This document shows, piece by piece, positions 34,968 through 62,746 of a stretch of DNA of 64,000 bases. This stretch comes from Planctomycetota bacterium. Lineage in GTDB: Bacteria; Planctomycetota; UBA8742; UBA2392. A program made the translations under genes and the position numbers. The DNA is taken from NCBI GenBank assembly GCA_019186845.1, contig JABARW010000004.1:79084-143083 (forward strand). Reading direction: 5' to 3'. Position 1 is the first letter of the stretch, and the number at the start of each line of letters is the position of its first letter. The notes under the pieces were generated by a model that was not told the DNA's origin, ran no database searches, and saw only the letters and a list, made by a program, of their open reading frames with translations.

Positions 34968-35078
34968 TCCGATCGTGTCGACAACCCGTCGTGTACCAAT
35001 GGGAGTGGGCTAAAGTCTCAGATACGGAACGTCCGATAACTGAAACGGCGTTGAGCTCGACTCGGCATCGGAGCGAAG

Positions 35079-35662
35079 ATGGCTCGCGAAATTGCGTTCG
35101 ACATGGAAGGGCTTCTGCCGCCCTATGCAGGCGAAAACGCGGGGGACCCGGCCATTCACCCTACTTTGTTGGGTCGATTGAGTTCGTCAATTTCTTTGCG
35201 ACATCACTCAAGCGCGTGGCTCTGACGGAGTCGCTGTTTGAACTCCGTCGTCGCGTTCACGCTGTGGGTTTCTTGAGCGGAGAGCAATGGGTCGGGGGGA
35301 GCTTTGTCGAAAAGAGGGCAAACCAGCCCGAACCCGGTGACATCGATGTTGTTACGTGGCTTTATGACCGGCCTGGGTGCAAGTCGAGGCGCCTCACAGA
35401 CCAGATGCGAAAGGCGATTCTCGTACTCGGGCGCAATCATGCAAAGGCAGAACTGAACATTGACCACTTTGTCGTCGAGACAAGAGAGTTGGATACGCGG
35501 AGCCTTGCAGATTGGTTACGCTACTGGCACGGCCTGTGGTCACATCGCAAGGTTTCAGAGAGATGGAAAGGTTACGTCGCGCTCGAACTTGGCACTGAGG
35601 CGGATGACGACGCCGCTTGTACACTGTTAAAGCAGGTGAAGAGTGAACTGGCCAGAACGTAG
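35079..35662 (+). pseudogene. DUF6932-like nucleotidyltransferase-fold gene with a one-base frameshift
   Basis: The ATG at 35079 follows GGAG and encodes MAREIAFDMEGLLPPYAGEN up to GDPAIH. At about 35160 the frame shifts by one: restoring a single C in the CCC run continues into PYFVGSIEFVNFF and the rest, giving a smooth 194-residue protein. GGSFVE followed 14 residues later by DIDVV, and later LNIDHFVV, matches the DNA polymerase beta nucleotidyltransferase pattern (GS, DxD and a third Asp). I recall this as the DUF6932 family, usually of unknown role. Base composition is visibly less GC-rich than the neighbours, suggesting horizontal transfer. The shift may be real decay or a sequencing error. 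Confidence 0.72.
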
Positions 35663-35669
35663 GACTTAG

Positions 35670-36596
35670 ATGCGTACGTTTCTCAAGAAATCCCTAGAGA
35701 ACCAAAAAGCCACAGCTCGTAGCCTGCTGGACAAGCTGCCTTCTGACGCTGTGAACCGTGGCACCATGCAGGACTTGCTAGCGAAATTTGGCGAGCAAGA
35801 GCGTGCCCTTGAGGAACACCCCGATGGAAGAGCAAAGGTCATTCTGAAGTTTGGCGGTGCGCCAGTTCAGGACCGAAAATCCATCGACGCCAAGTTTGGT
35901 GCGGCGGCTGTAGGCGCTTTTCAAGATGTCGTGCAAGCTCAACTCGTGAGTCTCGTACAAGGTCCGCTAAATGAGCGAGGACCGCTGCCTTTACGTGACG
36001 CGTCCAATCTGAGGATTTCTGATGTAGTCCGAGGATCATTTGGCTTTGTCCTTGAGGAGGGCAGCCAGATGCAACTCAAACTTTCCAGCGACCTGTCGCA
36101 AGCCGTTGATGAGACCATTGATCTCCTTGCCCTCGCAGCCTCTGAAGACGAAGAGCTCTCAACAAGACTGCTGGTGGCAGACGGCAGGCTATTGGACAAG
36201 TTACGCGAATTCGCCTCGCTAGTGGATCGGAGTGAGGCGACAGTGAGTGTCTTCGGTGGCACTAAGCGGGTCGAATTGGACCGCTTTCATATGGCTAAGG
36301 CGAGCGGGGCACTTTCGCAGACGCAAATCAACACTCACCAACTCGAACTCAACGGGATCTTATCAGGGCTTCTGCCCGCCAAGCGTCAGTTCGAGTTCGA
36401 GTATCTCGAAGAGGAGCAAACACTTTCTGGGCGTATTTCGGCCGAGATAAGCCACGCTGCGCTGCTCGACATTGCTCGCAAGTACATACTACAACCATGT
36501 CATGCCACAATTCAGCGTCGCACGGTCACTCGCGGCAGCAAGGTCTCTGAGCCATCGTTCACTCTGCTCTCAGTGCAAAACGTTCCCGAAGAGTAA
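35670..36596 (+). CDS. Unknown protein, partner of the DUF6932-like gene
   Basis: The gene starts seven bases after the DUF6932-like stop and shares its lower GC and codon use, so the two form one transcription unit of probable foreign origin. The 308-residue product has a helical N-terminus (about 1-50), a central alpha/beta region containing FGGAPVQDRKSIDAKFGAAA and ISDVVRGSFGFVLEE, a helical stretch, and a beta-rich C-terminus. I see no signal peptide, membrane segment, nuclease motif or known catalytic triad. No function is proposed. It is intact, unlike its neighbour. The next 121 bases before the TetR gene show no gene. Confidence 0.75.
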   Translation: MRTFLKKSLENQKATARSLLDKLPSDAVNRGTMQDLLAKFGEQERALEEHPDGRAKVILKFGGAPVQDRKSIDAKFGAAAVGAFQDVVQAQLVSLVQGPLNERGPLPLRDASNLRISDVVRGSFGFVLEEGSQMQLKLSSDLSQAVDETIDLLALAASEDEELSTRLLVADGRLLDKLREFASLVDRSEATVSVFGGTKRVELDRFHMAKASGALSQTQINTHQLELNGILSGLLPAKRQFEFEYLEEEQTLSGRISAEISHAALLDIARKYILQPCHATIQRRTVTRGSKVSEPSFTLLSVQNVPEE

Positions 36597-36717
36597 CCGT
36601 TCGCCCACCTCTGAAACCGCTCTCTTCTGGCGGATTGCCCGGCTTGTGGCCCCAGAAGGGCCAATCACGAAATCCTGCCTCACACCACCTTAGGCGCTCC
36701 GGGTGGGCTCATGCGGA

Positions 36718-37296
36718 CTATACGCAATCGGAGGCCTGCGCCATGAGGCTTGCCGCTTCTTCGTCGGTGAGGCCGGACTTGCTCAGTTCCTGCCAGGTGT
36801 GGAACGAGATGGCGAGCGCGATCAGGGCGGCGGTCTGTTTCAACTTTTCGCGCGAGCCTTGGCAGTTGGCCATGAGCACGGCGTGCAATTCACGGAAGAA
36901 CTGCTCAATGGCCTGCATTGAGGGCTTCATGGCGGGCACGACTGCGGCGTCGCGCAGGATCAGTGCCAGCATGGCCTGATTGCGGCGGAAATATGCATAC
37001 AGCGCACCGAGCGCGGCGTTGAGCCTTTTGGCGGGATCGTGCATGGCCGCGAACTCTGCCAAGTCCGGCAGCGGGTTTTGCGCCATGTAGTGCCCTGAGC
37101 ACGCGGCGAAGAGCGCTTTCTCACTGGGGAAGTGGCGGTACACCGTCAGACGCTGCACCCCCGCGCGCTTAGCAATTTCGGAAATCGTGGTCTTCGCCGG
37201 GCCGACCGTGCCGTGTAGCTCGACCGTGGCCTCGACAATGCGCTGGCGTGTGTTCTGCTCGCTTTGGGCGCGTTTGGTTTTGCGGTAGTGGCGCAT
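36718..37296 (-). CDS. TetR family transcriptional regulator
   Basis: A 192-residue one-component repressor. The N-terminal DNA-binding helix-turn-helix is clear (TTISEIAKRAGVQRLTVYRHF, about 41-61; quoted here only as the core EIAKRAGVQRLTVYRHF). The C-terminal domain is Ala/Leu-rich with no recognisable ligand. It diverges from a diiron hydrolase-fold gene. Two matching 20-base operators and a good promoter lie in the 93-base gap, so it probably represses both itself and that gene. A -10-like TATACT on the - strand at 37308-37303 is only six bases before the ATG, so its mRNA may be leaderless. Confidence 0.9.
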   Translation of the reverse strand: MRHYRKTKRAQSEQNTRQRIVEATVELHGTVGPAKTTISEIAKRAGVQRLTVYRHFPSEKALFAACSGHYMAQNPLPDLAEFAAMHDPAKRLNAALGALYAYFRRNQAMLALILRDAAVVPAMKPSMQAIEQFFRELHAVLMANCQGSREKLKQTAALIALAISFHTWQELSKSGLTDEEAASLMAQASDCV

Positions 37297-62670: not shown

Positions 62671-62746
62671 TGGTAGGCGCTACAGGACTCGAACCTGTGA
62701 CCCCTGCCGTGTGAAGACAGTGCTCTACCAACTGAGCTAAGCGCCC
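62671..62746 (-). tRNA. tRNA-Val (anticodon CAC)
   Basis: On the - strand the 76 bases form a full cloverleaf. The acceptor arms are GGGCGCT and AGCGCCT, with the first pair G1-U72; the D-arm is GCTC/GAGC; the anticodon stem CTGTC/GGCAG holds the loop TTCACAC, giving anticodon CAC that reads GTG (Val). The T-arm is ACAGG/CCTGT with TTCGAGT. The CCA tail is encoded. It is read towards the DUF6941 gene. Confidence 0.95.

What the first reader, a model, noticed from the sequence alone, without database searches (positions are those of the whole stretch)
35079..36596. Two-gene accessory island: DUF6932 nucleotidyltransferase-like gene plus an unrecognised partner
The pair sits between core genes, has visibly lower GC and different codon use, and is tightly spaced (seven bases). 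The first product has the GS...DxD...D pattern of the polymerase-beta nucleotidyltransferase fold, as in MNT antitoxins and AMP-transferring toxins. The second has no recognisable domain. A small mobile nucleotidyltransferase-plus-partner unit is the usual shape of toxin-antitoxin or phage-defence modules. The motif match and composition are seen; the system role is inference.
Basis: partly seen in the sequence, partly recalled or inferred. Interest (0 to 1): 0.66.

Follow-up and report, generated by a model that had tools for sequence, protein, structure and literature searches.

The report
Nucleotidyltransferase–partner phage-exclusion gene pair
This is a small, recently acquired pair of bacterial genes, an enzyme that probably transfers nucleotides and a partner of unrecognised family, which travel together on chromosomes, plasmids and prophages (often in the slot where phage lambda keeps its phage-exclusion genes) and so probably form an anti-phage module, although the enzyme gene in this particular genome looks broken.

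Summary
The island is real. Two genes (A 35079-35662, B 35670-36596) lie in a 1.77-kb stretch at 55% GC against 63%, between core genes. Both congeners searched lack them; the one aligned through has a REP-type transposase there. B is not an orphan. Of 61 B homologues found using B alone, 60 have A or its remains directly upstream, and A and B co-diverge (Mantel r 0.92). In lambdoid prophages the pair sits right behind the CI repressor, the rexAB slot. B's confident model matches DUF6575 phage proteins; a DUF6575 protein belongs to a validated E. coli anti-phage system. Other DUF6932 genes carry an XRE-HTH partner instead, so A is more likely the effector and its partner the regulator. PADLOC lists the kind as candidate PDC-M63AB; the A model matches, while B matches no PADLOC model. 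Deleting PDC-M63AB in E. coli NILS69 gave no phenotype against ten phages. Best reading: a phage-exclusion module, NTase effector plus DUF6575-like regulator; a variant of a known candidate, mechanism untested. This copy may be non-functional.

The parts
34968..36732 (.). Accessory island (low GC) inserted between the end of the icmF-like gene and a tetR-like gene
   Evidence: GC 55.2% vs 63.1%; same junction in congener G001 aligns on both sides and holds a different insert; in G002 alignment stops at the icmF end and a similar transposase ORF lies downstream
35079..35152 (+). N-terminal piece of gene A (MAREIAFDMEGLLPPYAGENAGDPA...), in a different frame from the rest; homologous part 35094-35144
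   Evidence: Second-best hit in the whole six-frame window for the A model, model positions 5-21, directly before the main hit; homologues start ...FNxxGVLPPxxG...SPY
35153..35662 (+). Main part of gene A: DUF6932 nucleotidyltransferase domain (model positions 26-190)
   Evidence: PF22014 E 4e-22, PADLOC PDC-M63A E 1.8e-12, phrog_9194 E 1e-21, AlphaFold pLDDT 87
35297..35302 (+). GS of the NTase motif
   Evidence: Invariant in 56 homologues
35339..35347 (+). DxD of the NTase motif (D62, D64 of the modelled piece)
   Evidence: Invariant in 56 homologues
35462..35464 (+). Third acidic residue (D103 of the modelled piece), start of a beta strand
   Evidence: 94% conserved; strand E102-109 in the model
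35670..36596 (+). Gene B, 308 aa, intact; phrog_18731 family, DUF6575-like fold
   Evidence: model pLDDT 92.5; BFVD match to DUF6575 protein E 3e-12
35673..35816 (+). B: N-terminal two-helix hairpin (residues 2-49)
   Evidence: DSSP of the model
35835..36317 (+). B: alpha-beta core with the invariant RGS(F)GF motif (residues 56-216)
   Evidence: Model; invariants G63 V66 F76 G122 S123 G125; hhalign to a DUF6575 protein E 7e-5 for one pairwise comparison
36321..36581 (+). B: C-terminal OB-like beta barrel (residues 218-304)
   Evidence: Strands in the model; local PDB matches to OB folds such as SSB (Rim1), CusF/SilF, eIF5A, none with E <= 0.001

Best explanation
A and B form one two-gene phage-exclusion module that moves between chromosomes, plasmids and temperate phages. 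A is a small polymerase-beta-type nucleotidyltransferase and the likely effector: it transfers a nucleotide to a cell or phage target still unknown. B is a non-enzymatic partner (two-helix hairpin, DUF6575-like core, OB-like barrel) that most likely binds A, keeps it inactive and senses infection through its core or barrel. In lysogens the pair is probably made together with the CI repressor, as rexAB is in lambda. Shown here: linkage, co-divergence, intact NTase motif, B's fold class, rex-slot position, the frame break in this copy. Inferred: activity, which partner is effector, sensing, and protection itself.
For: Linkage: of 61 loci found with B alone, 60 have A or its remains directly upstream, mostly overlapping by 4-17 nt. 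A and B pairwise identities correlate (Mantel r 0.92, 0 of 2000 permutations). All four plasmid B genes have A upstream. Position: in E. coli lambdoid prophages the order is LexA/CI-type repressor, DUF6932, B; in 8 of 10 viral contigs tested the gene just upstream is a repressor (HTH_3, mostly with Peptidase_S24). Lambda rexAB and CarolAnn 43-44 are exclusion genes co-expressed with the repressor (PMC6426606). Defence neighbours: type IIG and type I restriction enzymes, DpdE, PLD-helicase, but not at every locus. Fold: B model pLDDT 92.5 matches a DUF6575 phage protein E 3e-12 and a DUF6575 sequence by hhalign; DUF6575 is in a validated anti-phage system (PMC9519451). A: invariant GS, DxD and a third D; weak top fold hits are MNT NTases. 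Effector/regulator assignment: elsewhere DUF6932 is followed by an XRE-HTH protein, a regulator type, so the NTase is the constant part.
Against: Deleting PDC-M63AB in E. coli NILS69 did not change infection by ten phages (PMC12409345). No E <= 0.001 PDB match for either model. B lacks a conserved catalytic residue set, so its role is inferred. B without intact A occurs (L063, L072, L075, and this window) and A without B occurs (L037), so tight toxin control is not evident. No complex was modelled. The neighbour survey has only a small baseline, and the window itself is not a defence island or prophage.
Confidence: 0.5

Rival explanations
1. Type VII-like toxin-antitoxin pair: A is the antitoxin, as MntA is, and silences the toxin B by adding AMP to it.
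For: A's top (weak) PDB matches are MntA and other MNT antitoxins of HEPN/MNT pairs; it carries the GS...DxD motif that transfers AMP in MntA (PMC7641770); A comes first and overlaps B.
Against: B has no HEPN motif: no alignment column is mostly His, and no tyrosine reaches 70% conservation as an AMP acceptor. B genes survive where A is lost or broken (L063, L072, L075, L039, window), unlikely if B were a constitutive toxin. Other DUF6932 partners are HTH proteins.
Confidence: 0.2
2. Not defence: a housekeeping-like or mobile-element modification enzyme (for example of tRNA or protein) with an OB-fold substrate adaptor, carried as cargo.
For: OB-like barrel in B; several homologues sit between ordinary metabolic genes, as here; negative deletion test (PMC12409345).
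Against: Patchy presence (5 of 343 genomes of the phylum; 8 of 5426 E. coli), prophage rex slot and restriction neighbours fit conflict systems better.
Confidence: 0.15
3. The window copy is a decaying remnant: a real frameshift has disabled A and only B is made. (This concerns this copy and can hold together with the best explanation of the family.)
For: A's N-terminus and body are in different frames; two other A genes are frame-broken at other sites (L030, L039), so decay is common and the break is not a shared programmed site.
Against: The genome is an 88%-complete 89-contig assembly; a single-base assembly error next to a G5 run cannot be excluded. B is intact.
Confidence: 0.55
4. A makes a small nucleotide signal sensed by B, as in CBASS.
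For: NTase plus partner layout; mobile distribution.
Against: A is about 190 aa, a minimal NTase; no PADLOC CBASS model and no CD-NTase Pfam family matches.
Confidence: 0.05

Closest known systems
PADLOC candidate system PDC-M63AB
   Same: Two-gene unit, A model PDC-M63A matches (E 1.8e-12), prophage-borne in E. coli NILS69 (PMC12409345)
   Different: The B protein here, and those of four plasmid homologues, match no PDC-M63B model; defence never shown
HEPN/MNT (MntA-HepT) type VII toxin-antitoxin
   Same: Minimal NTase with GS...DxD; weak fold similarity of A
   Different: Partner is not HEPN, lacks RX4-6H, has another fold
DUF6932 + XRE-HTH gene pairs
   Same: Same first gene family, same order and spacing
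   Different: Partner is a 130-167 aa HTH protein; no significant profile similarity to B
DUF6575 proteins (one is in an E. coli anti-phage system, PMC9519451)
   Same: B's fold over about 280 columns (E 3e-12) and core sequence
   Different: B lacks the DUF6575 Pfam signature and comes with an NTase; no DUF6932 gene is seen next to the DUF6575 gene in L131
Lambda rexAB / CarolAnn genes 43-44 exclusion systems
   Same: Two genes behind the lysogeny repressor in prophage homologues
   Different: No Pfam or PADLOC match of A or B to those families; the window copy is not in a prophage

Membership tests
DUF6932 (PF22014) | Score above the curated cut-off | tested here: met
   79.5 bits vs 27
DUF6932 (PF22014) | Conserved GS, DxD and third D | tested here: met
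DUF6932 (PF22014) | One uninterrupted gene in this genome | tested here: not met
   Two frames; concerns this copy, not family membership
PDC-M63 (PADLOC candidate) | A component | tested here: met
   PDLC04744 E 1.8e-12
PDC-M63 (PADLOC candidate) | B component matches a PADLOC model | tested here: not met
   No PADLOC match up to E 10; plasmid homologues likewise have no M63B match
PDC-M63 (PADLOC candidate) | Protects against phage | not testable with these tools
   Published deletion in NILS69 negative (PMC12409345)
HEPN/MNT type VII TA | NTase of MNT type with GSX10DXD | tested here: inconclusive
   Motif present with a different spacing; fold hits weak, E 0.03
HEPN/MNT type VII TA | Partner is a HEPN protein with RX4-6H | tested here: not met
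   No conserved His; other fold
AbiE (AbiEii type IV TA) | AbiEii Pfam family NTase | tested here: not met
   Only DUF6932 found
CBASS / CD-NTase | CD-NTase family match | tested here: not met
DUF6575 (PF20215) | Pfam match | tested here: not met
   None of 56 B proteins at E <= 0.05
DUF6575 (PF20215) | Shared fold | tested here: met
   Foldseek E 3e-12, prob 1.00, TM 0.42 with flexible domains
Rex-type exclusion systems | Gene pair behind the lysogeny repressor | tested here: met
   In prophage homologues, not in the window
Rex-type exclusion systems | RexA/RexB family proteins | tested here: not met
   No such Pfam match

The most novel reading that the evidence does not exclude
DUF6932 nucleotidyltransferases are the constant effector of a modular family of phage-exclusion systems whose sensor/regulator half is exchangeable (XRE-HTH, a 330-aa protein, or the DUF6575-like B protein), and the B branch is a lysogen-expressed exclusion system that replaces rexAB in lambdoid phages and kills or stalls infected cells by nucleotidylating a cell target.
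Probability: 0.3. Interest if true: 0.78.

Novelty: new variant of a known kind. Interest (0 to 1): 0.5.

Why it matters
A search of the open-access library held here found no paper naming DUF6932, and the PADLOC candidate PDC-M63AB has no mechanism. Showing that the pair occupies the rex slot, that its second protein shares a fold with a component of a validated anti-phage system, and that the NTase swaps partners turns it into a directly testable exclusion system of temperate phages.

Tried and rejected
Single-sequence search of genome contigs with B found nothing; a four-sequence alignment worked. PDB sequence searches gave no credible match. A tethered A-B model through a stop codon (L064) was considered, but the mixed alignment put B rows on A's GSF motif, so no complex was modelled. 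HEPN and CD-NTase ideas were rejected. Homology of B to the 330-aa partner of L024/L027 looks plausible by order of elements but is not significant; those two share an N-terminal hairpin with the HTH partners. A programmed frameshift in A was rejected because the three broken A genes break at different places. No repeats, tRNA or promoter signals mark the island's edges. More DUF6575 relatives could not be collected.

Full report
Observation. Two genes lie at 35079-35662 (A) and 35670-36596 (B), seven bases apart. The stretch 34968-36732 has 55.2% GC against 63.1% on both sides, and no other stretch of that size in the window is below 59.2%; GC3 of B and A are the lowest of the genes compared. 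The place is variable in the genus: in congener G001 both flanks align at 89-91% identity around the same junction, which there holds a REP-type (IS200-like) transposase ORF; in G002 alignment stops at the icmF end and a similar ORF lies downstream. The names icmF, tetR and transposase are read from sequence and general knowledge, not tested here.

A profile of intact homologues, made without the window's row, matches A from model position 26 to 190 in one frame (nt 35153-35647). Its second-best hit in the entire six-frame window is model positions 5-21 (LLPPYAGE) in another frame at 35094-35144, directly upstream. Either A is broken in this organism or the assembly has a small error. Two other A genes (L030, L039) are also frame-broken, at other sites, so a programmed frameshift is unlikely.

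A is DUF6932 (PF22014 E 4e-22), PADLOC PDC-M63A (E 1.8e-12) and phrog_9194. GS, DxD and a third D are invariant or 94% conserved, with invariant Y, H and KG. The AlphaFold model (pLDDT 87) gives weak best PDB matches, several of them MNT nucleotidyltransferases including MntA with AMP-PNP (E 0.03).

B has no Pfam, NCBIfam or PADLOC family but is phrog_18731 (E 5e-35). Its model is confident (pLDDT 92.5): a two-helix hairpin, an alpha-beta core with an invariant RGS(F)GF motif, and an OB-like barrel. No PDB match reaches E 0.001, but viral predicted structures give a DUF6575 protein at E 3e-12, a Leptospira phage protein at 5e-10 and a further phage protein at 1.5e-9. Profile comparison with a DUF6575 protein gives E 7e-5 for one comparison. 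A DUF6575 protein is in one of the validated anti-phage systems of PMC9519451.

Linkage. Searches with B alone found 38 genome loci (mostly Pseudomonadota, one Chloroflexota, one Spirochaetales) and 23 viral contigs. A lies directly upstream in 60: 57 apparently intact, one frame-broken (L039), two truncated (L063, L072); in L075 an insertion element replaces A and B's start. The genes usually overlap by 4-17 nt. Some viral loci are near-identical, so independent cases are fewer. Identities of A and B between loci correlate (Mantel r 0.92), as expected for joint inheritance. All four plasmid B genes have A upstream; one plasmid A has lost B beside a transposase (L037).

Context. In E. coli the pair is in 8 of 5426 complete genomes. 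In both contexts examined it is in a lambdoid prophage, between the repressor and the early left genes, on the repressor's strand. In 8 of 10 viral contigs tested the upstream gene is a CI-type repressor. That is the position of lambda rexAB and of CarolAnn 43-44, a proven exclusion system (PMC6426606). On chromosomes some copies adjoin type IIG or type I restriction enzymes, DpdE or a PLD-helicase, and nine alphaproteobacterial copies adjoin a DUF6527-E1 (ThiF) gene pair that belongs to a multiubiquitin cassette where the sequence reaches far enough. The baseline for neighbour enrichment is small.

Direction. Other DUF6932 genes in the same phylum are followed by XRE-HTH proteins or a 330-aa protein whose N-terminal hairpin resembles that of the HTH partners. 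The NTase is the constant part and the partner changes, which favours A as effector and the partner as regulator. B also survives without A and lacks a conserved catalytic set, which speaks against B as a constitutive toxin. This is inference.

Known status. The only paper found that names PDC-M63 reports its deletion in E. coli NILS69 without effect on ten phages (PMC12409345); no paper in the held library names DUF6932. The kind is therefore known as an untested or negative candidate. The B lineage here is outside PADLOC's models, and the DUF6575 link, the rex slot and partner swapping were not found in the papers read. Verdict: a new variant of a known candidate kind, probably a phage-exclusion module, with a possibly dead copy in this genome.

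Noticed in passing
L100 (G001 C17) 449-1503; L117 downstream of icmF: The same icmF-tetR junction in congener G001 holds a REP-associated (IS200-like) transposase ORF; in G002 a similar ORF lies downstream of icmF. The junction is an insertion hotspot.
   Followed up: partly
L002, L038, L040, L042-L045, L051, L073: Nine alphaproteobacterial A-B pairs lie next to a convergent DUF6527 - ThiF (E1) gene pair, followed in seven of them by a multiubiquitin gene within the fetched sequence; L014 (DUF6932 + HTH) is also next to a multiubiquitin-like ORF.
   Followed up: partly
L013, L014, L016, L017, L020-L023, L025, L026, L033: Other DUF6932 genes are followed by an XRE-HTH gene with an N-terminal helical hairpin, a likely separate toxin-antitoxin-like family.
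   Followed up: partly
L024 493-1482 (-), L027 512-1495 (-): A third DUF6932 partner type of 330 aa with the same order of elements as B (hairpin, GS motif, barrel-like end); its hairpin resembles that of the HTH partners. One is in a congener of the window genome (G001).
   Followed up: partly
L030 1-330, L039 7300-7620: Two further A genes with frame breaks in the N-terminal third, at sites different from the window's.
   Followed up: partly
window 62671-62746 (-): tRNA-Val, the only tRNA in the window; not near the island.
   Followed up: no
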